64,000 nt of DNA, taken from NCBI RefSeq assembly GCF_033472595.1, contig NZ_CP137642.1, positions 1,054,001 through 1,118,000 of the forward strand. Direction: 5' to 3'. The notes beneath the pieces are model-generated. The model saw nothing but the letters and a program-made list of their open reading frames with translations. It searched no databases and was not told the origin of the DNA. Source of the DNA: Methanoculleus receptaculi. GTDB lineage: Archaea; Halobacteriota; Methanomicrobia; Methanomicrobiales; Methanoculleaceae. A program made the position numbers and the translations under genes. Shown here piece after piece: positions 3,001 through 26,683 of this stretch (its first letter is position 1; each line of letters begins with the position of its first letter).

Positions 3001-3242
3001 CTGACAACCGACATCAGGTGCGACTTACCGGTACCATAATTCCCAACAACCAGCAGCCCTTTCTTGTCGAGCGTTGTGTTCAGTTCAAGGTGAGGTATAA
3101 GAACCTCGATGAGATTCTTCGCCATCCCATCCGAGATGACATATGTCTCCACAAGGCGCCGGGCCTCATCCTTTTTATCCGCCTCTCGCAACTGAACTAC
3201 ATCTTCAATAGGATCAAACCGAACGAGATCGCCGTATTTCAT
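1..3242 (-). CDS. brxC: BrxC-like large P-loop ATPase of a type 3 BREX system (C-terminus beyond the window)
   Basis: The reading frame starts at ATG 3242 and stays open to the left edge (about 1080 codons, no stop), so the C-terminus lies outside the window. A Walker A motif (GNYGTGKS) is near residue 75 and a Walker B stretch (GLLLVVDELLDYL) near residue 175; the remainder is long, charged and partly helical, as in the BrxC/PglY/DUF6079 class of 1100-1300-residue ATPases. The start codon overlaps the stop of the upstream brxF (ATGA), so the two are translated as a unit. The order brxF then brxC is the beginning of a type 3 BREX operon; a PglXI methylase, BrxHII helicase, PglZ and BrxA would be expected to the left, but this is inference. 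Base composition is visibly less GC-rich than the core genes of the right half. Confidence 0.8.
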   Translation of the reverse strand, partial: MKYGDLVRFDPIEDVVQLREADKKDEARRLVETYVISDGMAKNLIEVLIPHLELNTTLDKKGLLVVGNYGTGKSHLMSVVSAVAEHADLVEHLQSDDIKEPVKKIAGQFKVIRTEIGAVRQSLRDIVCGELERNLAKIGVDYSFPPADRLVNHKDAFIAMMNAFNEKYPDKGLLLVVDELLDYLRSRQEQELILDLNFMREIGESCRLSRFRFMAGIQEALFDNPRFEFVAESMRRVQKRFESVRIVRTDVSYVVAERLLKKTPEQKAMIRHHLGKFTALYGDMNERLDEYVALYPIHPAYLEIFEKLFVVEKREILKTLSRDVKKLIEEEVPTDSPGLLSYDHYWEPLSTDTSLRTNQDIREVIEKGQILEGILNRSFQRKQYLPSAIRIVHALCVHRLTTGDVSSPIGLTPEEIRDDLCIYLPIPEQDSEFLLTTIESILREIGKTVSGQFISHNDENDMYYIDVRKDIDYDAKIEERADSLDKGILDRYYFEVLAGVMKTPGSTYVPGYRIWEHEVIWRDRQAGRSGYLFFGAPNERSTAQPPRDFYIYFLQPYDPPLFTDELRSDEVFFRLSRMNETFETALRLYAGAREMFTNSSGSNRSIYGAKASEHLKTITKWLRENIITAYDVTYQGVTRPLVELAKEGGINTSGDISDTINDISAHCLAPHFEEIAPDYPHFLQVIRSKEREEAMKDAIKCISGVRVQRGIAVLDGLNLLEDGSINTENSVYARHINDLIRSRGVGQVLNRSEIIGGQRGVEYDLRFRLEPEFVVVVIAAMVYHGDVVVAYPGKKITAANFEDLTRMSVADLTAFKHLELPKEPPIEVLAELFSLIEISPALVRNSATHREAVKQLQARVAGLIEEVVAAKEVLKSSLTLWGQSVLDESRKEDAARKLDDLKVFLESLQRFKTEGQLRNFGSSRADVRKQQKNLEVMREIGDLDKFCRRVAPVTQYLAEAERVLPDDNPFLQSLVEQKKALLEKIRDPETQKTKEFQREFERELNRLKKEYIDEYLRLHGAARLGVEGDNRKKRLMKSPALKAIRELSSIEIMPKGDLTRFEAELTRLKPCFALDSSALE

Positions 3243-3733
3243 GCCACAACACACCCCCTCCCATTTGATGATACCGATAGGATCGGGGTATCACCAAGAT
3301 GATTCCTGCCATACCTCCGGTAGTCATCATGGCCGGTATAAGCGTACACGAGTTCCGATCCATCATAATCTCCGTTCCATGCGGCGATTACGGTTTTGTA
3401 ACGCCCGAGATTGCTCAGTAAACGGAATGGATCGAGAGCCAGGTCGCGGGAGAACAACACCTCGGTTCTATCGAGCAGCACTGCCTCACCCTCTACCTTC
3501 ATGATAATCTCGTGAAGTAAGCGTTCGGCCATAATAGGACGGTCGCAAGGAGGTAAATCAAGGAGTCCTCGACTCAGCTCAGTGTTCACGTTGATGCGTG
3601 GAAAGCCAAACTGATCTTCGCAGTTGCGCAACACAGCGGAAATCTCTCTTCCTGACCGACCGGTCAGGATGATTAATCTGGTATTTTTAAGCGAAACCGA
3701 GTCGAGAGCCTCCCGAATCATCATACAATGCAT
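3239..3733 (-). CDS. brxF: BREX-3 system protein BrxF, with degenerate P-loop
   Basis: A 164-residue protein that matches my recollection of BrxF: a nucleotide-binding-like N-terminus, a central INVNTELSRGLLDL segment, a Walker-B-like AVLLDRTEVLF, the family stretch TVIAAWNG and a C-terminal YRRY. In the position of the P-loop the sequence reads LTGRSGREIS, so the lysine expected in GxxGxGK[ST] is missing; nucleotide binding may be lost or unusual. The gene overlaps the downstream large ATPase by ATGA. Alternative ATG starts at codons 4 and 5 exist; no clear Shine-Dalgarno precedes the first ATG, consistent with a leaderless transcript. The family call comes from motifs and neighbour order, not a database search. 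Confidence 0.72.
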   Translation of the reverse strand: MHCMMIREALDSVSLKNTRLIILTGRSGREISAVLRNCEDQFGFPRINVNTELSRGLLDLPPCDRPIMAERLLHEIIMKVEGEAVLLDRTEVLFSRDLALDPFRLLSNLGRYKTVIAAWNGDYDGSELVYAYTGHDDYRRYGRNHLGDTPILSVSSNGRGCVVA

Positions 3734-9042: not shown

Positions 9043-9164
9043 GGCCCTGTTTCTCCTTTGTCTAAATCTAGGTTGGATCCAGGGCCAATTCCATTTTACA
9101 GAACTTTCGTTACGCTACCGATCCGGCACAGCACCCGGATGATCATATGGCACATTGTGGCAAA

Positions 9165-9205
9165 TATGCACAAGTATAAGTATCACGCTGACTGAGAATA
9201 CACAT
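9165..9205 (+). promoter_or_regulatory. Promoter of the toxin-antitoxin pair
   Basis: AAGTATAAGTAT (about 9172-9183) is a good archaeal TATA box, centred about 28 bp before the ATG at 9206. That spacing implies a leaderless message for the antitoxin. Confidence 0.5.
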
Positions 9206-9436: not shown

Positions 9437-9457
9437 CGCGCCGGGGAGCAGGAGAGC

Positions 9458-9739
9458 GTGTTTACTCTTGTCATTGAGCGAAGGGCACGGGAGTTCGTGA
9501 AGAAGCTCCCCCCAAAAACCCGGCGCATCATCGTCGAAAAGATCCTGGAACTCAAAGAAGACCCCTTTCCGGGAGGAAACAAGGAAAAACTCGAGTACCC
9601 CCACCCTCCTGCAGTCTATCGCCTGCATATCGGCAGGTCTTTCACGGTATTTTATATCATCGAGCATGAGGAGAGCATCGTCAAGATCGAGAAGATCATG
9701 ACGATCGAGAAAGCCCATAAGGAGTACTCCCGCAGGTAG
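9458..9739 (+). CDS. RelE/ParE superfamily toxin
   Basis: Ninety-three residues starting at GTG 9458, with GGAG nine bases upstream. The fold pattern of RelE/ParE toxins is visible: VIERRAREFVKKLPPKTRRI, the helix pair ILELKEDPFPGG, then the strands YRLHIGRSFTVFYII and IVKIEKIMTIEKAHKEY. RelE members cut mRNA on the ribosome; ParE members poison gyrase; sequence alone does not separate them, though the basic residues (K, R, H) at the end of the sheet fit a ribonuclease. The antitoxin lies directly upstream in the same operon. Confidence 0.82.
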   Translation: MFTLVIERRAREFVKKLPPKTRRIIVEKILELKEDPFPGGNKEKLEYPHPPAVYRLHIGRSFTVFYIIEHEESIVKIEKIMTIEKAHKEYSRR

Positions 9740-9751
9740 GGAGGACGACCC

Positions 9752-10402
9752 ATGCAGATTCATAAGGATATCCTTGCCGCCTTTCCCGGCCTCTCGGTCG
9801 CAGAGGGCGTTATCGGCCCGCTCTCGATCCGGGAGACGGCCCCGGCCCTAAAAGCCCTGGGCGACGAGGTCGCCCGCTCGATACGGGAGCGGTATACGCT
9901 GGAGAGGATCAAGGACGAACCCCTGTTCAGGGCATACAGGGACTTCTTCTGGAAGGTGGGCGTCGATCCGACCAAAACGCGGCCCGCCTCGGAAGCGCTG
10001 GTGAGAAGGATCCTGGCCGGGAAGACGCTCCCGGCGATCAACACCGCGGTGGATGCCTATAACCTGGCCTCGGTCCGCACAGGCATACCCATTGCGGCGT
10101 TCGATGCCGATACCCTGGTCGGGGATCTCGCGATGCGGTTTGCTGAAGAGGGCGAGGAGTTCCTCGGCATCGGGATGGCAGCGCCCGTCATGCTCCGTAG
10201 GAACCAGGTTATCCTGACGGATGAGGATGCGATCGTCGCCGTCTACCCGTACCGCGACTCGGATGCAACGAAGATTACCCGCGCCACAACGACGGTTCAC
10301 ATCGTGGCATGCGGCGTGCCGGGGGTTGAGCGGGAGAAGGTCCATTCGGCATACGAACTGGTCGTCGCATACCTGCGGGAACACGCTTTCGGCATCCGGT
10401 GA
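9752..10402 (+). CDS. B3/B4 domain protein (PheT editing-domain-like)
   Basis: A 216-residue stand-alone B3/B4 domain, the fold found in the beta subunit of phenylalanyl-tRNA synthetase. Visible features are YRDFFWKVGVDPTKTRPASE, the segment VRRILAGKTLPAINTAVD, DLAMRFAEEGEEFLGIG and the C-terminal VHIVACGVPGV. Free-standing B3/4 proteins are common in archaea and bacteria; a tRNA-editing or nucleic-acid-binding role is suspected but not shown. The GGGAGG ribosome site lies eight bases ahead of ATG. It follows the toxin gene by 12 bp but need not be part of the toxin module. Confidence 0.85.
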   Translation: MQIHKDILAAFPGLSVAEGVIGPLSIRETAPALKALGDEVARSIRERYTLERIKDEPLFRAYRDFFWKVGVDPTKTRPASEALVRRILAGKTLPAINTAVDAYNLASVRTGIPIAAFDADTLVGDLAMRFAEEGEEFLGIGMAAPVMLRRNQVILTDEDAIVAVYPYRDSDATKITRATTTVHIVACGVPGVEREKVHSAYELVVAYLREHAFGIR

Positions 10403-13140: not shown

Positions 13141-15177
13141 TCACTCACCAAGAACCTTGAACAGGGCGTCCCTTGGGTCCTTATAGTAGATGATCATCAA
13201 CCGGGACGCCAGGTCGTCCGACATATCGTTGAGTTGCCTCCGGCAGGATACCGGCAGCAGGATTGCCGTAGCCCCTTTTTCTGCGGCTAACTCCACCATA
13301 TCCAGTGCGTTGTAGACCGGCTCGACGGTTCCGCCCACGCTCATGCCCCCACCAATCACCACGCCACCTTTGAGGCTTCTACCAAGCGCTGCTGAGCAGA
13401 GGGCAAGGAGAAGCGGCATTCCAAGTGAAGAGGCACCTTTTACCGCGGTGAGTGCACGGACCTGAACGGAGAATTCACTCTCCCTCGGGTCCCGGTCACC
13501 TATAAGCGATCTGGCCTGCGTATAGAAGACCTGTTCTGCAGCGCGGAGCCCCTCGCGAAGTCCGGCCGGTGCTTTTACATTGATCAGGCGTACGGATGAA
13601 CCCGGTGTCACCGTGACCTCAATCTTATAAATGCCGCTTCCTTCGTTCTCCTCCCCCGGACCGATCGCCCAGACCTGGCCTGGCGGTAGTGGGTCCTGCC
13701 CTATCTCATTTTCGTTATGTAACTCCGGGGTTGCGACGTACTGTTCAATCCCGTCCATACCGAGTTTGTAGCTGAACATGGTGTTGCGGAACTCCGCAGA
13801 ACCGATCCGTTTCTGTTGCTCTTTGACCCTGCGACGGCACTCGAGAGCCAGACGCACCGCCCACTCAAGGACATCATCAGAGATCTCCATATCTGACGAG
13901 GGATAGACAAGTTTCAGGAGACCGTTTACCGTCTTGTTCACGGCCCGGCGGTCGCGTCCGCTCAGGGCATCCCCGAAGAAGACGCGGTCGTTTATGAGGT
14001 GGAGTTTGTCCTCGCTTCTGAGTTGCCTCCAGCACTCACTCAGGAAATCGCTGACGAGACCATAGTGCTCTGTCATCATGTTTGGATGGATCTTCGGGAA
14101 ATCCCAGCCCGGCACATAACTGTGAATCCTATCCATGAACGCGGTATCATCTCGGATCTCTCTTGGCAGCGGACCGAACAGGTGGCCCACACGCTGCTGG
14201 TGCTCGACATCAATCTCAAAGTTGCCGAGCATAACAATTCCACCCTCCGCCCTGATGCTCTCCTTGCCACGGGAGAATTCCCCGCTTTCCATGTACCCTT
14301 TCATGATGTTGATGCCATCTTTCTGGTCAAAGTTTATCCCCGAAACCTCGTCGAAACAGACAACATCATACTGGCATACGAGACCGCGCTGACCGGTTGC
14401 GTTGTTTACAAACATCTTTGCAACCGTTGCCTTTCCACCCGAGACCAGATGGGAGTAGGGGCTGATCTGCTGATATAGGTAACTCTTTCCTGTTCCACGG
14501 GGGCCGAGTTCGATCATGTTGTAACCCTTCTCGACAAAGGGGACCATGCGGAGAAAGAGGACGTCCTGTGCTCTTGGGGATAGAGAGGAGGGTTCTATCC
14601 CGATGCTCCTGATGAGGAAATCCTTCCACTCTTGAATTGACATCTTCTCACGCCCACGGGCGACATCGTCGAGGACGTTCCTCTTTGAGAGCTGGATTGG
14701 GCGCAGGCGAGTTATAGAGAACGGGCGGTTGCTCTCCGGATCAGCGTATGCAAGATCGATCTCCGCGTAAAACCCGCCGGTAAGCATCCGTTCATGCTCA
14801 TAGACGAGGTCTGATGAGATATGGACATCGTTCAGGAGGAGGGATGGGACCGTGGCGAGAAAGGAGTCTGACCTGGCATCGAGCCTGGCGGTGATGAGGT
14901 CTATGATTTTAACTGTGCCGTGTACCTTTGCCTGTGCTTTGTAGAATTCTTGCTCTCCTGCACGGACGATGCGCTCACCAAGCTGGCGCTGGACTATCTC
15001 AAGTCCATCCTTAATCTCATCTTCATCGGTTGTGGCACAGTATTTTCCGATTAGAAACTCTGCAACGTAGGTGGGGACCGGGTAATTGTCTTTGAACTTC
15101 TTTGCGAGGTCTTTTCTGACAACGTAGCCTGGAAAAACGTCAGCCGCCATCTGATCAAGGGCATCTAATTCTGTCAT
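13141..15177 (-). CDS. brxL: BREX-1 system protein BrxL (AAA+ with Lon-like C-terminus)
   Basis: The 678-residue protein is the last gene of the type 1 BREX operon. An N-terminal domain (1-200) precedes an AAA+ core with Walker A GPRGTGKS at 225-232 and Walker B DVVCFDE near 271-277, followed by sensor-like VMLGNFE. Residues from about 540 resemble a Lon protease domain (VRALTAVKGASSLGMP, then VIGGGMSVGGTVEPV). Where Lon has its catalytic lysine (GG[IV]KEK) this protein has GGTVEP, so proteolysis is unlikely; BrxL proteins are thought to act on DNA as ring ATPases in phage exclusion. It starts 3 bp after the pglZ stop. The length is normal for the family. Confidence 0.93.
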   Translation of the reverse strand: MTELDALDQMAADVFPGYVVRKDLAKKFKDNYPVPTYVAEFLIGKYCATTDEDEIKDGLEIVQRQLGERIVRAGEQEFYKAQAKVHGTVKIIDLITARLDARSDSFLATVPSLLLNDVHISSDLVYEHERMLTGGFYAEIDLAYADPESNRPFSITRLRPIQLSKRNVLDDVARGREKMSIQEWKDFLIRSIGIEPSSLSPRAQDVLFLRMVPFVEKGYNMIELGPRGTGKSYLYQQISPYSHLVSGGKATVAKMFVNNATGQRGLVCQYDVVCFDEVSGINFDQKDGINIMKGYMESGEFSRGKESIRAEGGIVMLGNFEIDVEHQQRVGHLFGPLPREIRDDTAFMDRIHSYVPGWDFPKIHPNMMTEHYGLVSDFLSECWRQLRSEDKLHLINDRVFFGDALSGRDRRAVNKTVNGLLKLVYPSSDMEISDDVLEWAVRLALECRRRVKEQQKRIGSAEFRNTMFSYKLGMDGIEQYVATPELHNENEIGQDPLPPGQVWAIGPGEENEGSGIYKIEVTVTPGSSVRLINVKAPAGLREGLRAAEQVFYTQARSLIGDRDPRESEFSVQVRALTAVKGASSLGMPLLLALCSAALGRSLKGGVVIGGGMSVGGTVEPVYNALDMVELAAEKGATAILLPVSCRRQLNDMSDDLASRLMIIYYKDPRDALFKVLGE

Positions 15178-15180
15178 GGA

Positions 15181-17478
15181 CTATTCCACTCCTATGATCG
15201 TCTTGCGCTGGGTCACTGTGTTTCCATTCTCATCGAGAACGACGATCATAGCTTCCTTTCCTTCAAGGTTGTCATCTGGAACAAGAAGCGAGACCGCCCC
15301 TTCACGTGGAACTGTTTTTTTATCCTTGGTGACGCTGGTCGCCGGGTCACCCGGTTTTAACCGGATGTCAACGGTGTAGCCTTCGGCACCATCGACCGTG
15401 ATATGGCAGCGGAGGCCTCTCCAGGAGGGTGTCTGGATGACCAGTCTCTGTGCTGCACCCGACCCTCTGGTCACGACGATCTCGGGCACGACAACCTCCT
15501 GGGGGCTTAACCCGCCGTGGTCATACTCCCTGCCTGCCTCGAAGCAGGTGATCCCGGGTGCGAGGGCAATCCGGACATTTCTATCCCAGAACCAGGCTAC
15601 AGTGGGGAGATTGGTGGTGCTGTCGGGCAGGAGATCCGCATACCGGCCTCGGCCTTTCTTGAACGAGACGAGCGACTGGAGGAGATCGGTCTTGTTCAGA
15701 CCACCCGGCAGGAGGAGCCATCCGTGGTCGGTGACGACGCTGACCTGCTGCCACCCGGCATCAAGGAGGTCGATGATCCGCCGTTCGATCGTTGCAAGTT
15801 CGTCGTCAAGGGCCGCTGGCAGTTCGCTGCCTCTCTCATGTCCCGCCCGATCGATGTTCCCGCATTCTGTCCATGCCCGGCCCTCCGTGTCGCCGTAACC
15901 GTCATCCCCCAGCACCTGGATCTTCTGTTCTTTAAGGAGCGTTCTCAGTGCAGAGATCTGTGCGACTGCTCCAGTCCTGGTTACGGGGGTGAGGTTCTGC
16001 CCTCCAGCGAGTTCTCCTGCGATGGGCATGACAGCAGGTTTTGCGGTCTCGGTGGTGGTGGGGAGGACTGAGAGACGGTAAGTCAGGGTGCATGTGCAGC
16101 CAGATCTCTGCAACCGCTCCTCAAGGCGGCGGCCGATGTCCATACGGAGCCCATCGACGAAGAGCAGCACTTCGCCCTGAGATGGCTCCCATGTCTCTTT
16201 ATGCTGTTCCGGGGGAGATTTAAGCCATTCGTCCTGAAATGCCGTGGCGAGGTCATCAAGCCATTTACGTGCGATTGCGCGGATCGCGGTGGTTACAGCC
16301 TTTCGATCCTCCTGTCTCCTGACGTGGGCAAGCGCCATGACAATGGCATCGTCAGCCCTCCAGTATTCGTTGGCGTAGCGCTTCGACTGTTCCTCGATGG
16401 TTCCGCCAAACCTGAAGTCTTCTGTCAGTTTTGCGAGCCTGGAGAGGTGCTGGAGAGCGAAGGCAAGTGGGCTTTCGCCAAGGTCGGCCCAGACCCAGGA
16501 GCGCCGGGCTCCGTGTTCTTCCTCAAGCCGCAGGATCTCCCGGCGGGCTTCGTCGATGGGGGCACCCTGGAGGTTGAGGAGTGCCTGGCGGAGATCTTCT
16601 TCCATGGCATCATTGATCTGGGGCCACGACTCACTGAACATTGGCAGCGGCGGCAGGGGGGTGTTTCGGATCAGTGTGGGTATGTTTGGGTAAGCATGGG
16701 GGTTTTCTCTGTAACGCTCCCAGACGTCCGCCCATCGCTTGCCCTGTGAGGTGAGCAGTTCGACAGCGGTTGCGACGCCGTCGGTATGGGGGTCGAACCC
16801 ATAATCCGTCTTGCAGATGTAGCGAAACGACGACCAATCTTTTGGGCCCATCCGCTCCTTTTCTTCCTGTGGTGAGTTCATCCAGAGGAGGATCTGTTTT
16901 CGGTAATCTGGCTGGGCGAGGCTGGCAAGATAGGCGGCATTGAGGGGCTGGTGGCTCTTGATTGAACTGATGGGTTCGTTGCAGAGTTTGTCGATGTTGT
17001 CTCTGAGCAACTTTTTTGTGTCCTGGTCGGAGGTGGTGGCGATGTCGAGGTGCGCCTTAAGAAATCGTGCTATCGTCCAGTCCCGTCCGTTGCGGTGGGA
17101 CCAGATTGCGCCCCGATACTGGAGTTCTGCGAGAGGCTGGATGGGTTCAGGACCGTCACCTATGTTGCGGAGTTCGATCCTGGAGTAGCCGGGGAGGTAT
17201 ATGACCGGCGTTTCGTTGTCGGGCAGCCCTGTTCCGGGGAGGGTGCCTTCTACCAGGCAGCGGATGTAGATGGCCGGGCCCCGCCACTGCCCGGGGTCGT
17301 AGTCACCGAGTGTTATGATCGGGAGGCCCTTCTCCTCTCTGAGCAGGGTTGCCACCGGTTGCCACTCTCCGCTCGGGTCGGGCCAGAGGAGGGCTACCGG
17401 AGGTGTGGTGTTTTCGCGGTTGTAGTCCCTGATCGCCGCTCTGATGGCGTTGTCGATGGCATCTAGCAGGGTTGTCAT
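15181..17478 (-). CDS. pglZ: BREX phosphatase-like protein PglZ
   Basis: A 765-residue member of the PglZ family, the only component shared by all BREX types. The alkaline-phosphatase-like domain lies in the second half: VLLFVDGLRMDIGRRLEERL (metal-binding Asp), SVVTDHGWLLLPGG (DHG metal site) and YDHGGLSPQEVVVPE (second His-containing block), followed by a beta-rich tail. The N-terminal 400 residues are the PglZ-specific helical part. Its start overlaps the pglX stop by ATGA. Size and motif order fit the 'type B' PglZ of type 1 systems. The protein acts with PglX and BrxB/C in host methylation and phage exclusion; the reaction of the phosphatase fold is not settled. Confidence 0.93.
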   Translation of the reverse strand: MTTLLDAIDNAIRAAIRDYNRENTTPPVALLWPDPSGEWQPVATLLREEKGLPIITLGDYDPGQWRGPAIYIRCLVEGTLPGTGLPDNETPVIYLPGYSRIELRNIGDGPEPIQPLAELQYRGAIWSHRNGRDWTIARFLKAHLDIATTSDQDTKKLLRDNIDKLCNEPISSIKSHQPLNAAYLASLAQPDYRKQILLWMNSPQEEKERMGPKDWSSFRYICKTDYGFDPHTDGVATAVELLTSQGKRWADVWERYRENPHAYPNIPTLIRNTPLPPLPMFSESWPQINDAMEEDLRQALLNLQGAPIDEARREILRLEEEHGARRSWVWADLGESPLAFALQHLSRLAKLTEDFRFGGTIEEQSKRYANEYWRADDAIVMALAHVRRQEDRKAVTTAIRAIARKWLDDLATAFQDEWLKSPPEQHKETWEPSQGEVLLFVDGLRMDIGRRLEERLQRSGCTCTLTYRLSVLPTTTETAKPAVMPIAGELAGGQNLTPVTRTGAVAQISALRTLLKEQKIQVLGDDGYGDTEGRAWTECGNIDRAGHERGSELPAALDDELATIERRIIDLLDAGWQQVSVVTDHGWLLLPGGLNKTDLLQSLVSFKKGRGRYADLLPDSTTNLPTVAWFWDRNVRIALAPGITCFEAGREYDHGGLSPQEVVVPEIVVTRGSGAAQRLVIQTPSWRGLRCHITVDGAEGYTVDIRLKPGDPATSVTKDKKTVPREGAVSLLVPDDNLEGKEAMIVVLDENGNTVTQRKTIIGVE

Positions 17479-20400
17479 CTCTCTTTCACCTTTTCTCTTG
17501 CCTTCCGTTTCTCTTCAAGCTTGAAGTGGCGGTCGTTGTAGCGTTCCACGCTCCCGGAAGCATTTGGGACGGGGTCTTTTCCGCGATCTTTATTCCAGTT
17601 GATGTTTGGTCTCGATCGGAGCACTCCGGCCTTGACGAAGGGCCGGATGTTGAGACGCACACCGTCGTTCAGGTCGGGGTCCCAGCCGATCGGTTGTTCG
17701 TGGAGAGGTTTCCACCGGACAAAGATGTCGTATGGCTCTTCACCCTCAAGGATCTTTGCGAGCCGTTCTTTCAGGTCTTCTGCGGCTGCAAGCCGCCGCT
17801 CGGCACCAGGGAGGCCCTTTTCCACTTCTGTCCGCTGCTGGTTGATCCAGGCTCCAAGATAGGTATAGGTCAGCCGTTCAAGGTTGCGTTTATCGAGTTT
17901 GTGGTAGTTGAGCAGCACCGAGAAACCGTCTTTTGTTCCGTCCCAGACCTGCCAGATGAACGGCCGATTGTTAAATAGCCGGGAGTGGGAGGCGAAGAAC
18001 TCGTCCCTGAGGAATCCTTCGAGGTCGCCTTTGAGGCTTCCATCCTTTTTTGTGTATCCGGCCTGTCTGAGGAGTTCGTCCTCCACGTGGGGTGACCACG
18101 CAGGACCATAGGCGGCGGCAAGGAGCGACCGGAGCCGGTCGACGAGCCTTCCCTCGCCCCGTATGGAGGGGATTGTGACGATGCCGTCCTTGTCGGCGAA
18201 GGAAAGGAGTTTCTTGCTCTCTGCCACCCACTCCCGCTGGAGGTCGGCAAGTTCCATATCGGGGTCGAGTTCGGCAGGCCAGCGGTAGCCGAGGAGGCGG
18301 GCGATGGCGACGTGGAGGACTGTTCCATCGGTGCGGAGGGGGCCGCGGGCGAGCATCTTTGTCTCCTCGTCCCAGATGACGCTTCCGCATGGGTGGCCGT
18401 GGAAGATCCACTGGGTGGGGTCGTTTGAGTAGGGCGCGGGGAGGCCGTGGGGGTACTTCTCGGCAGCAACCTTCTGCCAGTGGGGGAGGTCGAAGGGAAC
18501 CTTAACGAGGGTGGCGTTGGTGACTTTGAGGCTCTGGTCGATTTTTCGGACGGCGATGTTGTAATCAGGAGAGGAGCAGAAACACCAGATGGCGGGGAGG
18601 TGGGAGGGGTCGTGGGGGATTATTGGACCGACATTGCTATCGTAAAGTTCACCGGAGTAGAAAGTTGGATTTAACTCTCTCATTTGGCTGACTGCAATCC
18701 CTTTATTTCCCCATGCACTCTGGCCTTGTAATCTCGCCATATTTTTGCCTGAATCTCTCCAATCTACACAATAATGCATTCCATCGTACAAATTTTGCGA
18801 TTCTTCGGTAGTACTTTGATAATAACGCCAGCTTCTGATAGAGTAAGCAATTTCCCAAAATTCTCTTCTGTATCGGTTATCGTCACCTGTTTTTAGACCC
18901 TGTGAGGTATCTACAAATTCTGTAAGTAGAGGTAGTCCAGAACTATGTATATCATCTAAAATGATCCTCGCATCCGGATTCCCCAACTGCCCAGCCTGCT
19001 CCACACACGATATCTCTGCATCCAGAAGCGCCCGGGCCTTTGCCCCCGCATCGCGCTCCTCCGAGACATCCAGCCCGCAGAGGAGGTGCCCCTCTGGCGG
19101 TTTCGCATGGGTGAGGTTCAGGAGAATGGCCTTCACAACCTCGCCGGAGATGGTTTCAAATGCGCCGGGGCCCAGCCTCACCAGCAGGTCCCAGCGCTCT
19201 TTCTTCAGCAGGTGCTCCCTGAACCGCTTATACGATGCCAGGAAGAGCCAGTTCTGTGGCAGAACAATACTGACCTTCCCTCCCGGCCGGCAGAAAGCGA
19301 GGCACCGCTCAAGAAACACCGTTGCAAGATCGTTCTTTGCCAGAGGGTGGTTCTCCTCAATGAAGCCCCTCAGAACCTCTCCCTGTTTCCCGCTGGTCAG
19401 ATAGGGGACGTTCGTCATGACATAATCATACCGCCTGGAGAGGAGACCTGCCGCTTTCAGCACCCCCTCGCCCGTCTCGCCAAACGTCTCCGCGACCGGA
19501 TCGGCCGCATCCTTCTCCCGCCGCAGAGCCTGCTCAAACTTCTTCTCCAGAGTTTTCGGGTCGACAAGGGTCGGCTGCTTATCCACCCGGATCAGGCTGC
19601 CGAGGGTGTCAGCGTTCTTGAAGAGGTCGTAGTACTGCGCAAGCACGCCCTCCAGCAGCCCATCATCCCCGGCAAGACTCAGCCACTCCTCCTTCTTAGC
19701 CCTGATCGGTATCCCTGTGCAGGCCAGGTTTGGCACCGGCAGGTATGAATCGGTCGGGAACCCGGCCTTCCACGCCTCCAGCGCGATGGAGAACGTCGCG
19801 ATCTGGATGCACCGGGGATCAAGTTCAAGCCCGTGGAGGTTCTCCGTCAGGATGCCCCTGATCGCGGCCTCCGTCTCCTCACCAACCTCCCTTCGCATGG
19901 CAAGCAGCATATGAAACGCCGCGACCAGGAAATGCCCGCTCCCGCAGCAGGGGTCGAGGATCTTCAACTCCGCCGGGCTCTCAGGCCAGGCAGAAAAGTC
20001 GTGCTGCACCCCCTCCCTGTAGTAGCGCCACTCATTCCGGAGAGGACTATCCGGATGGAGGTGAAGCCACCAGGCGCCGAGCGTGTTCTGGAGCAGGAAC
20101 TGCACCATGTAGGGCTCGGTGAAGAGCTGGGTCACCGCGCAGATATCGTAGCCCTCCACCTTCCTCTCAGAGGCGTTCACCTCCCTCTTTGCATCGGTCT
20201 GCCAGAACTGGTATGTCCACCCCAGCGCATCCTCGGCAAGGAACGTCTCCGAAGGAATCCTCGCAAGGATCGACCGGAGCGCCATGGTATCCTCGGCCGC
20301 GAACCTGACCCGCGTCACCGGGCTATCACGCCTGAAGAGGCCGGGGAGCATCTCTGCCGCATAATCCCCGGCAACCTCCCAGAGATCCCGCCCCTCCTCA

Positions 20401-20735
20401 CGGGCGATCTCCTCACACTCATCAAGGGTGACAGGCACTCTGAACTCCGGGTGGATCAGCAGGCTGTTCTCGGCCAGGAACCGCGCAAAAAGCATCCGGT
20501 GCCACCGCTCGTAAGCTACCGACCTGACAAGGTCGTCAAACGACCCGAGCCTGCGGCACTCCGTCCGGAGTTGCCGACGTATCTCCGCCTGCTCCGCCGT
20601 GAGATAACCTGGCTTTCGCTCCTCATCAACACCAAGAACCAGCAGAGCATTTCTCGCCCCCTGTTCAGCCTTCCTGCGAGCCTCCTGTATCGCCTCATCG
20701 AGAGCGCTCCTCGCCTCGCGAGAGAGCACCGTCAT
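17475..20735 (-). CDS. pglX: BREX adenine-specific DNA methyltransferase PglX
   Basis: A 1086-residue type-IIG-like methylase. SAM-binding motif I is DPCCGSGHFL at 261-270; the catalytic motif IV reads TNVPY (442-445) where NPPY is the classical form, a variant I recall from other long PglX proteins. The target-recognition region follows (TGDDNRYRREFW near residue 615). It marks host DNA at an asymmetric site so that BREX spares it. Start and stop overlap brxC and pglZ by ATGA. Between about 18640 and 18960 (residues ~590-700) the DNA is strikingly AT-richer than the rest of the gene, suggesting exchange of the recognition domain. Confidence 0.94.
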   Translation of the reverse strand: MTVLSREARSALDEAIQEARRKAEQGARNALLVLGVDEERKPGYLTAEQAEIRRQLRTECRRLGSFDDLVRSVAYERWHRMLFARFLAENSLLIHPEFRVPVTLDECEEIAREEGRDLWEVAGDYAAEMLPGLFRRDSPVTRVRFAAEDTMALRSILARIPSETFLAEDALGWTYQFWQTDAKREVNASERKVEGYDICAVTQLFTEPYMVQFLLQNTLGAWWLHLHPDSPLRNEWRYYREGVQHDFSAWPESPAELKILDPCCGSGHFLVAAFHMLLAMRREVGEETEAAIRGILTENLHGLELDPRCIQIATFSIALEAWKAGFPTDSYLPVPNLACTGIPIRAKKEEWLSLAGDDGLLEGVLAQYYDLFKNADTLGSLIRVDKQPTLVDPKTLEKKFEQALRREKDAADPVAETFGETGEGVLKAAGLLSRRYDYVMTNVPYLTSGKQGEVLRGFIEENHPLAKNDLATVFLERCLAFCRPGGKVSIVLPQNWLFLASYKRFREHLLKKERWDLLVRLGPGAFETISGEVVKAILLNLTHAKPPEGHLLCGLDVSEERDAGAKARALLDAEISCVEQAGQLGNPDARIILDDIHSSGLPLLTEFVDTSQGLKTGDDNRYRREFWEIAYSIRSWRYYQSTTEESQNLYDGMHYCVDWRDSGKNMARLQGQSAWGNKGIAVSQMRELNPTFYSGELYDSNVGPIIPHDPSHLPAIWCFCSSPDYNIAVRKIDQSLKVTNATLVKVPFDLPHWQKVAAEKYPHGLPAPYSNDPTQWIFHGHPCGSVIWDEETKMLARGPLRTDGTVLHVAIARLLGYRWPAELDPDMELADLQREWVAESKKLLSFADKDGIVTIPSIRGEGRLVDRLRSLLAAAYGPAWSPHVEDELLRQAGYTKKDGSLKGDLEGFLRDEFFASHSRLFNNRPFIWQVWDGTKDGFSVLLNYHKLDKRNLERLTYTYLGAWINQQRTEVEKGLPGAERRLAAAEDLKERLAKILEGEEPYDIFVRWKPLHEQPIGWDPDLNDGVRLNIRPFVKAGVLRSRPNINWNKDRGKDPVPNASGSVERYNDRHFKLEEKRKAREKVKER

Positions 20736-23700
20736 CTGAGCATCACCGGAGTCCCCTTCTCAAGTTCAGCCAGCGCCCGCCTGCGGACACCCTTCAGGTA
20801 TGCATCGAGATCATCCGGGGTCTTCACCGTCACCGGCGCCCCGAGAGAGACAATCACCGTCTTTGGCTCAAGGATCTTTGCCACCGCAACCCTTATCCGG
20901 TCAAGCGCCCCCCTGACCAGCATCACGCGGCCATCGAAAGACGTCAGCGGAGTCTTTCTAAGGTGCTCCACTATCTCAGCGTCTGTCCCTATCTTCAACG
21001 GCAATGACTCACCGAGATTGTATTCCCGGATCAGACGTGCCCGGTCTGCATCATCAAGTCTCTGCCAGTCAGGATCAGCCTCAAGTGCAGCGAGCACCTC
21101 CTTTCGCGCCTCCTCCACGCGGGTGATCCCGGTATTCAGGGCTTCACGCAGCCCCTTCCGAAGATCAGCAAGCAGCGGTTCGACCGGATCAGGATCGTGG
21201 AGCAGACTCCGATTCTTACAGATCGCTTCCATCTCGGTCCTGATATCATCAAGATCCTCAAACCCCTCAGCGTGCGAGACCAGATGCTGCAGTGCATCCC
21301 ATGCAGGCTTCCGCTCCTCGATCTTGGCCTTTATCGTCTTCCACCTCTCAATATCCTGTTTGATAACCTCACGCCGTCCAACCAGTTCCCGCACCAACTG
21401 GTTGCCTGAGTATGCCTGGAGTTCAGCAAGGTAAGTGGGCGACTCTCGTGGCGGCAGCGGGGGGTCGTCACCGGTAGCCTCGATAAGGGAACGGAGACGC
21501 TCAAGGAAGATCACCGCCTCTTCCACCTCACGCCCCGGCTCCGCAGACAGACCCAGCTTCGTATAGAGTTCGCGGGCCGCAAGTTTCTCGTTGGGAGAGA
21601 GGACTATATTCTCCGCCTCAAAAGTTGTCTTCCCAATCTTGGTCTTATCCAGATCAGAAGCATATATCGGCCTGTTATTGAAACGGGCTTTCAGGTGACC
21701 GGTGGCCGCCAGCACCATCAAAGCCCCGTCTATCGCGTCCCGCGGCCAGCCGAACGGCGGCGCTTCAAGCGCTTTACGCACCTCGTTTCCGATCTTCGGC
21801 GTGTTCAGCCGCTTCAGGATCTCCTTGCAGACCGGATGCTCCTCGGGCTCTCTTTCAAACCCGATCTGCTTCATCGGTGTCCAGTCACCACTCTTCACAC
21901 GGGTGATGACACGATCCCATCCCGTGGCATCAGCATCAGAGAACCGGTAGTACATACGCTGGACAGCCTGCTCTGCTGCCTTCCTGACCGCACCTGCAAA
22001 CGAATCAGCCTCGATAGGGGTGCCACCGCCGATATACACATGTGCGTTCTTCAGGATCTCATCGACCAGCGAATCGATCCTCTGCATGTGGCCGCGGAGT
22101 TTCGCCTCTATGTTGGACCTAGCCTGATCGCCTTCGGGTGTGGTCGGGGCCGGACGTTCGCTTAGCACCCCCTCAGCAGCGAGCAGCCCGGCGATCTCAT
22201 CCTTTAGCGCATCATGGTTCAGCCGTGGTAAAAAGACCATCACCATCGGGCTTTCATTCCCTTCAGCGGCCGCCTCCGACTTAACACCTGCTTCGGTGAC
22301 CTCCCACCCATGCCGTAGCCATACCGGCACATTCGACCTGATCTCAGGTCTCTGCGGGGTGAAATAGGTTATATCGATCCCGCGCGGGGTTCTGCTCACC
22401 CCCTGTGACAGCGAGAAACTCCCAAGACGTTTGGCGACACAGTTCCTGAGGACTTCGTCCCGCTTGAACGTTATGCTCGTATCGCTCGCCCGGGCGTTGG
22501 CTTTTCGCTGCTGGTAATCTCCTTCCCAGATGCTACCCTCCTCGGTCTGGATGCGGTACTCATCCCCGACCTTTGCGATCACCCCGCGGTCATGAAGGTC
22601 TTTGAGATGGGTCGGGATTTCCTGCCTCAGGTCCTCGCTCCCTGCCGTCAGATCTGTGATCAGGAGATCGGTGAGGGTATCCGGTGTGGCTCTGATCCCG
22701 ATTGATTCATCCAGCAGCTGGATCAGAAAAAGAAGCGCCATTATCCGGGAACGAAGCCGCCCCTCCTTCGTCCCGTCATCCTCCTTGCTGATGCTCTCGT
22801 AGATCTTTGGGTAGAGGATGTTGTTCCGTATCATGTAAGTGCTCTGCTGGTTGAAGATGAAATCTGCCGGAATGACCGTTCCGACTGGATCTTTAGCAAA
22901 CTCACGGCTCCCCTCAAAGGTCAACCGCAACTGATTGCGCAACTGGGTGCTCATCCCTCCCCGGTCAACACTCTGCAGGACTCGTTCCCAGAATCGTTTC
23001 CTGGTAGGCAGTAGAGGATAATCAAGCACCAGAACATCCTCATCCCCGGGCCTTGGTGCCAGACTTGATCCGTCAAGGTGGCGTGAGATCTCACCGCTGA
23101 CCGACTCCAGAACACCTTTAAGGGGTTCTTTCATCGACTCCTTCTTCCGGAGGATCGTCTGACGGAGCACCACGTCGACATCTTTTGACTCCAGTGGAAC
23201 CTGCAGGGAAAACCGATCCTGGAGGCGCTGTAACTGGATGTTGGCATGTAGCGCATCCTGTCCTGTAGCGACAAAGAGCACCTTTGAACCAAATTTTTTA
23301 CAGCAATCCTCAACGACCTCCTGGAAGATTAACAACTGATCCGATCTCTCCCCGATCGTCAGGTACTGCTGAACCTCATCGAGAACTATCAGCACCAGAG
23401 GCATCTTTCCGGCTACGGTGCTCTTCATGGCAAATATATCCTTGAGCATCTCGACCATGGTCGAATTTGTCATCTGAAAATCGGCTCCAAACTGCCGTCG
23501 AAGATCCTCTCTGACCTGCTCCACATCCATACCACGGAAATCAGGGTTAAACTCGATGAGGGCCTCGGCAAACTTTCGAGAGACAAAGGGGCGGGTCATA
23601 TCTCTCTCACGATCCTGTTCGCGGAGTCTGTCCCGCACGGCATCGAGGATCCCGAGCTCTGCGAGCCAGAGGTGCACGCGGGCGGTATCGATATCCTCCG

Positions 23701-24208
23701 GGAGACCAGCGGAACGGAGGACAACCTGGAGTATGGCAACCCGGGGGTCGTTAGCGGATCCAGCACTCAGAGTCCCCGCAGCTGACCATATGCCTCCATG
23801 CCTGCGGCTCTCAATAGTAAGCTCGTTTAGGGCGTCCCGCACGTCATCCGGGAGCATACATACATCCCGTGCAGACACCCCATCGGGAAACTTCAGATCA
23901 CACCAGAGGAACTCCAGCACACGAACAAGATGTGATTTTCCGGAGCCAAAGAACCCGCTAACCCATATTGCGGGCTGCGATGGCTGGTCAAGATTATAGA
24001 GGAACGATTCAAGGATATTTTTTAACCCCCTGTGATACGATCCTTTACAGACAAAATTTTCAAGTTCGTAGCGGGCAACAGCCCACTCGTCCTCTGTGGT
24101 GATGGGACCTACTTTTGTTACACCATCGTTCGGGATGGTATAAGTAAGCGGATCCCTCTGGAAGACATCTCTGTTTAAGATTAAATCATTTGAAACCATA
24201 CTCATCAC
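20732..24208 (-). CDS. brxC: BREX-1 system P-loop ATPase BrxC
   Basis: An 1158-residue ATPase. Walker A GFFGSGKS is at 85-92 and Walker B PLVLIVLDEVQQYL at about 270-283, followed by a sensor stretch (KVLFVATGQDALH). The C-terminal third is helical and charged (EERKPAWDALQHLVSHAEGF). Start GTG 24208 overlaps the brxB stop; ATG codons at 24205 and 24196 are alternatives. The stop overlaps the pglX start (ATGA). It is distinct from the brxC-like gene at the left edge: their Walker A environments differ (SGFFGSGKSH against GNYGTGKSH) and they belong to separate operons. Confidence 0.93.
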   Translation of the reverse strand: MMSMVSNDLILNRDVFQRDPLTYTIPNDGVTKVGPITTEDEWAVARYELENFVCKGSYHRGLKNILESFLYNLDQPSQPAIWVSGFFGSGKSHLVRVLEFLWCDLKFPDGVSARDVCMLPDDVRDALNELTIESRRHGGIWSAAGTLSAGSANDPRVAILQVVLRSAGLPEDIDTARVHLWLAELGILDAVRDRLREQDRERDMTRPFVSRKFAEALIEFNPDFRGMDVEQVREDLRRQFGADFQMTNSTMVEMLKDIFAMKSTVAGKMPLVLIVLDEVQQYLTIGERSDQLLIFQEVVEDCCKKFGSKVLFVATGQDALHANIQLQRLQDRFSLQVPLESKDVDVVLRQTILRKKESMKEPLKGVLESVSGEISRHLDGSSLAPRPGDEDVLVLDYPLLPTRKRFWERVLQSVDRGGMSTQLRNQLRLTFEGSREFAKDPVGTVIPADFIFNQQSTYMIRNNILYPKIYESISKEDDGTKEGRLRSRIMALLFLIQLLDESIGIRATPDTLTDLLITDLTAGSEDLRQEIPTHLKDLHDRGVIAKVGDEYRIQTEEGSIWEGDYQQRKANARASDTSITFKRDEVLRNCVAKRLGSFSLSQGVSRTPRGIDITYFTPQRPEIRSNVPVWLRHGWEVTEAGVKSEAAAEGNESPMVMVFLPRLNHDALKDEIAGLLAAEGVLSERPAPTTPEGDQARSNIEAKLRGHMQRIDSLVDEILKNAHVYIGGGTPIEADSFAGAVRKAAEQAVQRMYYRFSDADATGWDRVITRVKSGDWTPMKQIGFEREPEEHPVCKEILKRLNTPKIGNEVRKALEAPPFGWPRDAIDGALMVLAATGHLKARFNNRPIYASDLDKTKIGKTTFEAENIVLSPNEKLAARELYTKLGLSAEPGREVEEAVIFLERLRSLIEATGDDPPLPPRESPTYLAELQAYSGNQLVRELVGRREVIKQDIERWKTIKAKIEERKPAWDALQHLVSHAEGFEDLDDIRTEMEAICKNRSLLHDPDPVEPLLADLRKGLREALNTGITRVEEARKEVLAALEADPDWQRLDDADRARLIREYNLGESLPLKIGTDAEIVEHLRKTPLTSFDGRVMLVRGALDRIRVAVAKILEPKTVIVSLGAPVTVKTPDDLDAYLKGVRRRALAELEKGTPVMLR

Positions 24209-24756
24209 TCTCGCGCCTCAATAGGCGTTGCGAGGTAGTTCCAGCCGTCACGGGCTTTCAGCAGCCGATAATTGCGCCCATCCCTGTCGCCGGGGAAGAA
24301 GAACATAAGACGACCGGGGATTTTCGTAGATCTGATCAATCGATCGATAACTGCACTCGCCCGGACGATTCCGTATAGACTCCCTATGCCGATCACGGCA
24401 ACCACGGTTGAGTCGTCGGCATCCTTCAACCTCTCTGCAAGGTGATCCGCGAGGCAGGTAACAAAGTCATCGAGATCATACTTTAGAAGGGACGGATCCG
24501 CAAAGTAGTCCTCAAGGTATTCGTTATCTGCCAGCCACCTCTCAAACATCCCGGTGACGTCAACCTCTTGCCAGTTATGCTTGGCCTGTTCGGTAACTAT
24601 CTTAAATTCACTGAGACGAGCGCGTATATTCCGCTCGTAAGAAGGGTCGTAGACGCAGAACCAGACCTTCTCCTCTCCGGAGAGCATCTCATTCCATTCC
24701 AACGAAACCTGCGTTTTGTAAGCCACAATAAGATCGTCAATCTTACTCATAACCAT
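24205..24756 (-). CDS. brxB: BREX-1 system protein BrxB (DUF1788)
   Basis: This 183-residue protein has the DUF1788 pattern: the N-terminal VWFCVYDPSYERNIR, the central MFERWLADNEYLEDYF, TVVAVIGIGSLYGIVRASAV and the terminal GRLMFFFPGDRDGRNYRLL with DGWNYLATPI. Its role in BREX is structural or regulatory, with no known catalytic site. It overlaps brxA upstream by about 10 bp and brxC downstream by 4 bp, so it lies inside one translationally coupled operon. Confidence 0.93.
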   Translation of the reverse strand: MVMSKIDDLIVAYKTQVSLEWNEMLSGEEKVWFCVYDPSYERNIRARLSEFKIVTEQAKHNWQEVDVTGMFERWLADNEYLEDYFADPSLLKYDLDDFVTCLADHLAERLKDADDSTVVAVIGIGSLYGIVRASAVIDRLIRSTKIPGRLMFFFPGDRDGRNYRLLKARDGWNYLATPIEARE

Positions 24757-25529
24757 CGAATCCCGTCAGCAAAATCAGGAGGGAAAGAGACCTCAACGAT
24801 CCCACCTGCATTCTTGTAGATCAGCCAGCCTTTCCTCACTGATTCGTAAACATATTCTTGAATTTCCGAATCCGTTGCATCCAGTACATTTGCCCATACG
24901 GTATTGTGGAGCAGTTTCCCACGCACACCGCAAAGGTAGCCAAGGAAGAGCGCGTATGTAACTGATGCCGGCCCTGCGGTTGCTTTTACCCTTGTTTTCA
25001 TGTTTTTATCTTCCAGATGCCCTGACTGCGTCCAGGATGAGAGAAGATTTTTACTTATGGACCTGACCGTCTTTGGGCTGTACCTGTGAGGGTACTCTTT
25101 CTCTACAAGATCCATCAGCAACTCTTTCTCGGCCACCTCTCCAACCTTTAAGGAGAGAATAAACGGTGCAGACGCACGGAGGATGGTATCCCGGGCGAGG
25201 GCGCACTGGAGAGCAAGCATCCGCCTCTCCCGGGGATCAAAATCCCACAGAAAACGAAGTGCGCGAAATACAGGAACCTGTACATCAAGCCCGTAAGACG
25301 ATTTCAGGTGATAGAAGCTCTTCTCTCTACCCGAAACACTGCTCTTCATGAGGATGTTTTCCTGCTCTACTTTCCTGCGGATCTCATCGAATGAGATCTC
25401 ATGTGGAGTAACTTCGAGCAGCAAAGAAAGTTCTTTAAACATGATAGTGCGTCCGGTGTGAGCGCTTGCAGAGTCCAGAAACCCCAACTCTTCGGGAAAA
25501 GAACAGTTTCCGGGAATATTTGTATTCAC
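24747..25529 (-). CDS. brxA: BREX-1 system protein BrxA (DUF1819)
   Basis: About 260 residues, first gene of the operon. Family-like segments are SAHTGRTIMFKELSLLLEV, RRKVEQENILMKSSVSGREK, FRALRFLWDF, LALQCALARDTILRASAPFI and a C-terminal winged-helix-like part (YEYVYESVRKGWLIYKNAGG). BrxA is thought to be a small DNA-binding protein. The start is uncertain: a TATA-like ACTATTTATC at about 25556-25566 favours GTG 25529 as a near-leaderless start; GTG 25547 and ATG 25442 are alternatives, and the frame is open to 25769. The gene is visibly AT-richer than its surroundings, in keeping with transfer. Confidence 0.82.
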   Translation of the reverse strand: MNTNIPGNCSFPEELGFLDSASAHTGRTIMFKELSLLLEVTPHEISFDEIRRKVEQENILMKSSVSGREKSFYHLKSSYGLDVQVPVFRALRFLWDFDPRERRMLALQCALARDTILRASAPFILSLKVGEVAEKELLMDLVEKEYPHRYSPKTVRSISKNLLSSWTQSGHLEDKNMKTRVKATAGPASVTYALFLGYLCGVRGKLLHNTVWANVLDATDSEIQEYVYESVRKGWLIYKNAGGIVEVSFPPDFADGIRWL

Positions 25530-25849: not shown

Positions 25850-25975
25850 CACCGCCCCCCCCCTGTGGCGGTAAAACATCGTAGCAACCTCGGCGGTCGT
25901 CGTTGCTTCCTCTGGGCTCCTATCATCGCGCCACCGCACAAACCGCGGAAACCGGAGGGCAAGCTCCCGCCGGCG
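25850..25975 (-). pseudogene. C-terminal scrap of an ATP-dependent DNA ligase
   Basis: The minus strand encodes RELALRFPRFVRWRDDR, then SPEEATTTAEVATMFYRHRG, the very end of archaeal/eukaryal-type ATP-dependent DNA ligases (FPRF..R.DKSPE.ATT..E). Everything before this is missing. A run of nine G near 25857 pushes the frame past the natural stop; with eight G the frame would end at once as expected. The fragment lies between the BREX-1 operon and a transposase remnant, so an intact ligase gene was probably cut by an insertion here. Confidence 0.75.
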
Positions 25976-26004: not shown

Positions 26005-26683
26005 TCATACATTAGGGAATATATTCAGTTCAAGCCTCTCTGCGATCTTCCGTACCTGCTTTGGCACCTCGGTGATCGCTCTCTCCTCCCCGCTCCTCAC
26101 TGCATACACCTTTGAAAGTTTCAGGAGGAGACCATGCGGTGAGAGATGAGCGGTCATTCCCACTTTCTTGATCCTATTCAGGATCCTGCAGTAGAGGTAG
26201 AGACACAGGAACCCCACAAAGACGTGGCCAAAGACCGCCGTTGCATCACGGAGGTATAGTTTATCCGCCTGGATTAAACTCTTGAACACAAGCATTATGT
26301 TCTTCCACCAGGCTTCTGGACTTGTAGAGGTCGTAAACCTCCCGGGGTTCTGCCGCGAGGGAGGAGACGATCAGGATCCGGCCGGCGCGCTTCAGTCGCT
26401 TATTCAGCGTCTCTCGGTCGATCACCCCCTCTTCCAGCAACCGGTAGAGCGTCTTCTCCTCCTCCGCCACCAGATCGACATCCTCATAGAGGTAGAGCGT
26501 CACCCCGTCCACCTCACGTTTCCCCGCATGGATCAGCCGTTTGTGGTAGAAGAAGTGGTCGGTGAGGTGGATCCGGGTCTCATACCGGGTGCTGTTGCGG
26601 CGCTGGGGGAGGACGAACTGGAGTCCTGACTCTCGCAGCAGGTTCTCGTTTGCCTCCGAGACGAAACCCCTATCGTAATTAGA
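26005..26683 (-). pseudogene. IS1634/IS4-like transposase, truncated and frameshifted
   Basis: From about 26683 the minus strand reads DRGFVSEANENLLRESG, TRIHLTDHFFYHKRLIHAGK, ILIVSSLAAEPREVYDLYKS, RSLVEE, then after a frameshift near 26285 LVFKSLIQADKLYLRDATAV and FGHVFVGFLCLYLYCRIL. These are the middle and C-terminal blocks of IS1634-type DDE transposases. The N-terminal half is absent. It abuts the DNA ligase scrap on one side and the unknown two-gene operon on the other. Confidence 0.8.

What the first reader, a model, noticed from the sequence alone, without database searches (positions are those of the whole stretch)
13141..25529. Complete six-gene type 1 BREX operon in a methanogen
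brxA, brxB, brxC, pglX, pglZ and brxL occur in canonical order on one strand, five of them with start/stop overlaps and the last with a 3-bp gap. All key motifs (two Walker sets, methylase motif I, alkaline-phosphatase-like metal sites) are intact, so the system is probably functional.
Basis: partly seen in the sequence, partly recalled or inferred. Interest (0 to 1): 0.6.

Follow-up and report, generated by a model that had tools for sequence, protein, structure and literature searches.

The report
Intact BREX-1 operon, PglZ type B
A methanogenic archaeon carries a complete, apparently intact six-gene BREX virus-defence operon of a known but little-studied branch whose DNA-marking enzyme has an unusual active-site letter, and a second, different BREX operon sits next to it.

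Summary
brxA, brxB, brxC, pglX, pglZ and brxL lie on the minus strand at 25529-13141, with 10, 4, 4 and 4 bp overlaps and a 3-bp gap. PADLOC and NCBIfam confirm the genes. It is a real type 1 BREX system and looks functional: dN/dS is 0.07-0.25 against a relative, and the PglZ metal residues match those shown to matter in E. fergusonii.

Refinements. (1) It belongs to the "PglZ type B" branch; its PglX is only about 25% identical to the characterised kind of BREX-1 enzyme and fails NCBIfam's BREX-1 PglX cut-off. (2) In this branch methylase motif IV reads NVP[YF], not NPPY: 69 of 72 sequences, against 8 of 8 NPPY in other PglX sampled. (3) The DNA-recognition block of PglX (about residues 590-705) differs sharply between close relatives in 4 of 4 pairs. 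(4) The pglX-pglZ junction carries inserts in 39 of 57 such loci; here it is empty. (6) The closest relative with the same operon has an insertion sequence in brxA.

The system is known; the branch's motif IV and the paired BREX are modestly interesting.

The parts
24747..25529 (-). brxA (GTG start, 260 aa)
   Evidence: PADLOC BrxA 268 bits; start at 25529 from DNA conservation with G034
24205..24756 (-). brxB (183 aa)
   Evidence: PADLOC BrxB 207 bits; Pfam PF08747 over cut-off
20732..24208 (-). brxC (GTG start, 1158 aa), P-loop ATPase
   Evidence: NCBIfam NF033441 758 bits, cut-off 400; Walker A 85-92 and D277-E278 invariant in 9 aligned homologues
17475..20735 (-). pglX/brxX (1086 aa), adenine methyltransferase with motif IV NVPY
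   Evidence: PADLOC PglX 1401 bits; NCBIfam BREX-1 PglX 384 bits, below cut-off 500; model matches solved BrxX/PglX; motif IV
18621..18968 (-). pglX segment for residues about 590-705: divergent (probably exchanged) target-recognition block
   Evidence: 20-residue identity profile against G034 falls to 0.10-0.5 between flanks of 0.8-1.0
15181..17478 (-). pglZ type B (765 aa)
   Evidence: NCBIfam NF033450 789 bits, cut-off 400; catalytic T476, H654 conserved
13141..15177 (-). brxL (678 aa), AAA+ with Lon-like C-terminus
   Evidence: Pfam BrxL_ATPase 430 bits, BrxL_N 145 bits; phmmer hit to solved BrxL 8emc, 1.7e-152
17475..17478 (-). pglX-pglZ junction, 4-bp overlap: the cargo slot of this branch, empty here
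   Evidence: gap tables of relatives
3239..3733 (-). brxF of a second, type 3 BREX operon
   Evidence: NCBIfam NF033453 137 bits, cut-off 50
1..3242 (-). 5' part of type 3 brxC (frame open to 435 bp left of the window)
   Evidence: uninterrupted 1242-codon frame; C-terminal part matches PADLOC BrxC 153 bits; pglXI, helicase, pglZ-3 and brxA follow outside the window
26005..26295 (-). IS1634-type transposase fragment upstream of brxA
   Evidence: NCBIfam NF033559 38 bits
25874..25972 (-). orphan C-terminal fragment of ATP-dependent DNA ligase
   Evidence: TIGR00574 positions 494-526; intact ligase elsewhere at C1:796248-797687

Best explanation
This is an intact type 1 BREX operon of the PglZ type B branch in a Methanoculleus-type methanogen. 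Most likely PglX, working with other BREX proteins, puts N6-methyl-adenine on one strand of a non-palindromic site of the host genome; incoming unmethylated viral DNA with that site is recognised by the PglX/BrxC/BrxB/PglZ assembly, and PglZ (a metal-dependent nuclease) and BrxL (an AAA+ DNA-binding motor) stop its replication. Shown here: the genes, their order, intact frames, conserved catalytic residues, purifying selection, the type B membership, the NVP[YF] motif IV of the branch and the divergent recognition block. Inferred from characterised E. coli, Salmonella, E. fergusonii and Acinetobacter systems: the chemistry, the complex and the defence phenotype. The divergent block implies that related operons mark and police different DNA sites (inference).
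For: Gene identities and order. dN/dS against G034: brxB 0.167, brxC 0.177, pglX 0.183, pglZ 0.249, brxL 0.072. PglZ: D442, T476, D543, D584, H585, H654 in 51 of 51 type B sequences and the same residues in the three non-B ones aligned; T476/H654 align with T538/H741, and T538A abolishes, H741A reduces E. fergusonii PglZ nuclease (PMC12205998, passages). PglX model (mean pLDDT 74) has E. coli BrxX and Salmonella PglX as its six best PDB matches, E 2e-35 to 2e-30. Motif I glycines and the TQLFT segment invariant in 24 aligned PglX. Operons with the same order in relatives. Recognition-block divergence in 4 of 4 close pairs.
Against: Motif IV is NVPY, not NPPY; no paper naming NVPY was found and no tested type B enzyme turned up, so methylation by PglX is not certain. 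NCBIfam's BREX-1 PglX model stays under its cut-off. G034, the closest relative with the operon, has brxA broken by an IS. IS and ligase debris lie upstream of brxA, and the DNA upstream of the start codon is not conserved with G034, so the promoter is unproven. The nearest sampled relative by peptidase identity (G004) has no match to either PglZ model.
Confidence: 0.85

Rival explanations
1. PglX of the type B branch binds and recognises its site but does not make ordinary N6-methyl-adenine (different base, much slower, or only a sensor), so self-marking in this branch differs from E. coli BREX.
For: Motif IV NVP[YF] in 69 of 72 deduplicated type B PglX with the motif in view, NPPY in 8 of 8 other PglX sampled.
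Against: Asn442 and Pro444 are invariant in 24 aligned sequences and the aromatic residue is kept; three archaeal members have NPPF, the two of them in the tree nested inside the NVPY lineage, so both forms seem compatible with function; motif I intact; purifying selection on pglX.
Confidence: 0.12
2. The operon is intact in sequence but silent or decaying: a recently acquired island with a debris-filled upstream region and no BrxR-type regulator recognised next to it.
For: IS1634, IS630-like and Mutator transposase fragments around it; lower GC than the right flank; IS in brxA of G034; patchy presence (14 of 199 genomes of the order over cut-off).
Against: All six frames open; dN/dS 0.07-0.25; an AT-rich TATTTATC box some 25 bp before GTG 25529, with a similar TTTTTATC in G034 (reading it as a promoter is inference).
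Confidence: 0.15
3. The relevant unit is a composite two-BREX defence island (type 3 plus type 1) selected as a pair, not two independent acquisitions.
For: A complete type 3 operon starts 9.4 kb away on the same strand; G000 is the only one of 199 order and of 392 phylum genomes with both PglZ models over cut-off.
Against: Chance expectation of genomes with both is 0.56 (14 x 8 / 199) and 0.37 (12 x 12 / 392), so a single case is no excess; genes lying between them here (9155-10402) occur together in other genomes in stretches where no other island gene matched.
Confidence: 0.08

Closest known systems
NCBIfam 'BREX-1 system phosphatase PglZ type B' operons (e.g. Deinococcus sp. QL22, Runella sp. 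SP2, Haliscomenobacter hydrossis plasmids)
   Same: Same six genes in the same order, PglX 41-48% identical over nearly the whole length, NVP[YF] motif IV
   Different: Those bacterial plasmid operons have 1.7-6.7 kb of cargo between pglX and pglZ; here the two genes overlap by 4 bp
Methanoculleus-genus genome G034 BREX-1 operon
   Same: 74-90% identical protein segments, empty pglX-pglZ slot
   Different: PglX recognition block differs (27% at residues 601-660); brxA interrupted by about 1 kb IS
E. coli / Salmonella / E. fergusonii BREX-1 (PglZ type A)
   Same: Gene set, order, BrxX fold, PglZ T/H metal residues, BrxL architecture
   Different: PglX about 25% identical over about 60% of its length; motif IV NPPY instead of NVPY; PglZ barely alignable
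Type 3 BREX (brxF, brxC, pglXI, helicase, pglZ-3, brxA)
   Same: The second operon of this genome is a complete one of this type
   Different: No BrxL found in it; different methyltransferase; not the operon of the finding

Membership tests
BREX type 1 | six genes brxA, brxB, brxC, pglX, pglZ, brxL in this order on one strand | tested here: met
BREX type 1 | PglZ over the curated cut-off of a BREX-1 PglZ model | tested here: met
   NF033450 788.7 bits against 400
BREX type 1 | BrxL with N-terminal, AAA+ and Lon-like domains | tested here: met
   Pfam hits, alignment to solved BrxL
BREX type 1 | PglX over the cut-off of NCBIfam BREX_1_MTaseX (NF033452) | tested here: not met
   384.3 against 500 bits; but PADLOC PglX 1401 bits and BrxX fold. 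NCBI also leaves this gene without a BREX name in the four NCBI-annotated type B plasmid records seen. This is a cut-off of one annotation model, not a defining feature of the system (gene set, order, PglZ, BrxL), so I do not read it as excluding membership
canonical (E. coli-like) BREX-1 PglX | methylase motif IV NPPY | tested here: not met
   NVPY at 442-445, NVP[YF] in 69 of 72 type B PglX
BREX type 1 | PglZ metal/nuclease residues | tested here: met
   T476 and H654 align with T538 and H741
BREX type 1 | host 6mA at an asymmetric site and virus exclusion | not testable with these tools
   no methylome or infection data
BREX-1 PglZ type B branch | full-length PglX and PglZ relatives in that branch rather than the E. 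coli-like one | tested here: met
   PglX bimodal on plasmids: 7 records at 41-48% with at least 95% covered, the other 18 listed (of 179 in all) at 24-29% and at most 69% covered; PglZ hits 8 plasmid records at 1e-20, named type B in 5, unnamed in 3
BREX type 3 (neighbour operon) | brxF, brxC, pglXI, helicase, pglZ-3, brxA | tested here: met

The most novel reading that the evidence does not exclude
Type B BREX is a separate branch whose methyltransferase uses a non-canonical motif IV (NVP[YF]) nearly fixed across archaea and many bacterial phyla, so its self-marking step differs in chemistry or in dependence on partner proteins from the E. coli-type BREX on which current mechanism rests; its members diversify by exchanging only the recognition block and by loading the pglX-pglZ junction with back-up effectors.
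Probability: 0.2. Interest if true: 0.6.

Novelty: new member of a known kind. Interest (0 to 1): 0.38.

Why it matters
BREX mechanism is known from a few E. coli-like systems. This operon is a clean, minimal (cargo-free) example of a widespread sister branch with a different methylase motif IV, in an archaeon. It makes two things directly testable: whether an NVPY PglX still makes 6mA, and whether exchanging residues about 590-705 alone changes the site. The neighbouring type 3 operon gives one cell with two BREX machineries.

Tried and rejected
Considered and dropped: (a) brxA of 340 aa from TTG 25769: conservation starts at GTG 25529. (b) Type 3 brxC broken: it only seemed so because it runs off the window; the frame is open. 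(c) The empty pglX-pglZ slot as something special: in the genome-contig survey 16 of 42 loci are empty as well. (d) Co-occurrence of the two BREX types as an excess: not above chance. (e) The upstream genes 26715-28493 and 28530-29660 as BREX accessories: the first has a match in 6 of 199 genomes, own genome included; the pair is present together in three relatives, of which only G034 also has this BREX, and there they lie 0.3 Mb apart. (f) DNA ligase end as integration site: only an orphan fragment, no att pair shown.

Led nowhere: single-sequence fold of the 592-aa protein (mean pLDDT 41); relatives of it in viral contigs; its PDB search; PglZ PDB search (no hit); first genome-contig scan with BrxC alone (no relative); Rfam on the window (none); searches for 'two BREX systems', 'NVPY' with methyltransferase, 'PglZ type B': no paper. 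These searches cover only the held open-access library. The founding BREX paper (PMC4337064) is not held.

Rows dropped before counts: motif IV: 2 duplicates (L135 = L056, L136 = L052) and 3 sequences without the motif in view, leaving 72 of 77. Slot count: one search gives 16 type B loci (the Acinetobacter type A row left out), one search gives 42, minus the 2 duplicates, plus the window, = 57; 18 are under 150 bp and 39 at least 1 kb. Loci whose contig ends before pglX or pglZ were not counted. The 80 genome-contig loci are the best 80 of 493 confirmed relatives, chosen by BrxC similarity, so they are not a random sample. In the PglZ conservation count two truncated sequences (L055, L062), the two duplicates and weak or incomplete matches were left out.
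Full report
What is there. On the minus strand of the window lie six adjoining genes, brxA (25529-24747), brxB (24756-24205), brxC (24208-20732), pglX (20735-17475), pglZ (17478-15181) and brxL (15177-13141). PADLOC scores are BrxA 268, BrxB 207, BrxC 1289, PglX 1401, PglZ 849 and BrxL 934 bits; NCBIfam puts BrxC and PglZ well above their cut-offs. The brxA start at GTG 25529 is supported by DNA similarity with relative G034, which begins exactly there.

Where it is. The window is C1:1054001-1118000 of a single-contig 1.98 Mb genome. The stretch from 1 to about 30 kb has GC 0.47-0.60 against 0.59-0.67 from 32 kb on and holds transposase fragments. Gene order shared with relative G004 starts at the peptidase gene at 31461, the right edge of the variable region. 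G034 has its BREX-1 operon within about 17 kb of the same peptidase gene, which suggests a common region.

Integrity. All frames are open. BrxC Walker A (85-92) and D277-E278 are conserved in nine homologues (one residue of the Walker A loop varies). BrxL aligns end to end with solved Acinetobacter BrxL (the source organism of that entry is recalled); the Lon-type lysine position reads SVGGTVEP, without the catalytic lysine (the Lon motif is recalled), as expected for BrxL, which lacks the protease dyad (PMC12839542, section 19). PglZ D442, T476, D543, D584, H585 and H654 are present in 51 of 51 type B sequences and in the three non-B ones aligned; T476 and H654 align with T538 and H741 of an E. 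coli plasmid PglZ, the numbers of the residues whose change abolishes or reduces E. fergusonii PglZ nuclease (PMC12205998, passages). dN/dS against G034 is 0.07-0.25 for the five genes compared; brxA was not compared because it is interrupted in G034.

Which BREX. PglZ is NCBIfam 'BREX-1 PglZ type B'. PglX hits on plasmids fall into two groups: seven records at 41-48% identity with at least 95% of the query covered (Aeromonas, two Deinococcus, Pseudomonas veronii, Runella, Haliscomenobacter, Azospirillum), and the other 18 listed at 24-29% with at most 69% covered; the table shows 25 of 179 records. All seven also carry brxA, brxB, brxC and pglZ relatives, and six of seven brxL (the Aeromonas locus shows none). 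A genome-contig scan with a BrxC profile found 493 relatives, of which the best 80, from bacteria of many phyla and from methanogens, were kept. The NCBIfam BREX-1 PglX model scores this PglX at 384 bits, under its 500 cut-off, and in the annotated type B plasmids the gene is named only 'N-6 DNA methylase', 'type II restriction endonuclease subunit M' or 'hypothetical protein'.

The unusual motif. Motif IV of the adenine methyltransferase, NPPY in E. coli BrxX (508-511; Y511A abolishes defence; PMC11842806, passages) and Salmonella PglX (509-512; PMC11341690, passages), is NVPY here. Of 75 deduplicated type B PglX, 62 have NVPY, 7 NVPF, 3 NPPF and 3 do not show the motif. Eight of eight PglX from six bacterial plasmids and one haloarchaeal plasmid (which has two) outside this branch have NPPY. 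In the tree the ten archaeal type B sequences group together (support 0.865), with the two full-length NPPF ones nested among NVPY ones, so NPPF looks like a secondary change. Motif I differs too: DPCCGSG or DPCMGSG in most, DPACGSG in those with NPPF. The Asn, second Pro and aromatic residue are kept, so I think it most likely still methylates adenine (inference). A search for NVPY with 'methyltransferase' found no paper.

Recognition block. Between the window and G034, PglX is 73-93% identical per 60 residues except 601-660 (27%), 661-720 (53%) and the last few residues. The same dip appears in the three other close pairs tested (G036/G012, G031/G001, G058/G033; wider in the last two), four of four. 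By order along the protein it corresponds to the target-recognition domain of E. coli BrxX (651-837) and Salmonella PglX (662-849). AlphaFold confidence is low just there (589-701), while the model as a whole matches BrxX/PglX best in the PDB. So related operons probably mark different sites. That the TRD is the most variable part of BrxX is already in print (PMC11842806).

Cargo slot. In 39 of 57 type B loci in which both genes are in view the pglX-pglZ junction holds at least 1 kb of extra DNA; in 18, including the window and G034, it is under 150 bp. In the methanogens it holds an AAA/ABC-type ATPase plus DUF4276 pair, a DUF2254 membrane protein, a DUF1016/YhcG nuclease, a DUF3800 protein or a transposase-like ORF (the transposase by eye only). 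Bacterial plasmid loci hold DarT, HNH, GTPase or AAA-plus-restriction-endonuclease genes. That BREX loci carry such back-up effectors, and that Salmonella has an ATPase and DUF4435 between pglX and pglZ, is known (PMC12839542 section 35 part 1; PMC9009780, passages).

A second BREX. Left of the operon, brxF (3733-3239) and brxC (from about 3242) of a type 3 BREX start in the window and run on to the left, followed by pglXI, an SNF2-type helicase, PglZ-3 (626 bits, cut-off 250) and brxA. All frames are open. An Orc1/Cdc6 gene lies beyond. Among 199 genomes of the order, 14 have PglZ type B and 8 PglZ-3 over the cut-offs, and only this genome has both; among 392 of the phylum 12 and 12, again only this one (the samples overlap). 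One case is what chance allows (0.56 and 0.37 expected).

Verdict. It is a new member of a known kind; the type B motif IV, the recognition-block divergence and the two adjacent BREX operons are the points worth following. Methylation, expression and defence remain untested.

Noticed in passing
window 1-3733 and L044 11711-19996 (G000:C1:1045711-1057733): Complete type 3 BREX operon on the same strand, 9.4 kb from the type 1 operon, next to an Orc1/Cdc6 gene.
   Followed up: yes
26715-28493 and 28530-29660 (-): Two adjacent genes (592 and 376 aa) of no known family; found together at 79-97% identity in G034, G100 and G086 (G086 is in another family of the order). The C-terminus of the first has an IPDVLY...YYEIETLF stretch that looks like a PD-(D/E)xK nuclease core by eye only.
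   Followed up: partly
25874-25972 (-): Orphan C-terminal end of an ATP-dependent DNA ligase; the intact gene is elsewhere in the genome.
   Followed up: partly
8171-8343 and 31221-31393: 91% identical 173-bp direct repeats: the start of a 168-aa gene of unknown family and a truncated second copy, 23 kb apart, flanking the BREX-1 region.
   Followed up: no
6817-7549: Local array of repeats (105, 55 and 33 bp, up to 98% alike) of unknown nature.
   Followed up: no
L056 9920-10246 (Methanocalculus chunghsingensis): A 109-residue pglX C-terminal fragment (79% identical to window residues 976-1084) between pglX and pglZ, perhaps a relic of pglX duplication or recombination.
   Followed up: no
L051 about 15464-16471 (G034): brxA of the closest relative with this operon is interrupted by a transposase-bearing insertion of about 1 kb.
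   Followed up: yes
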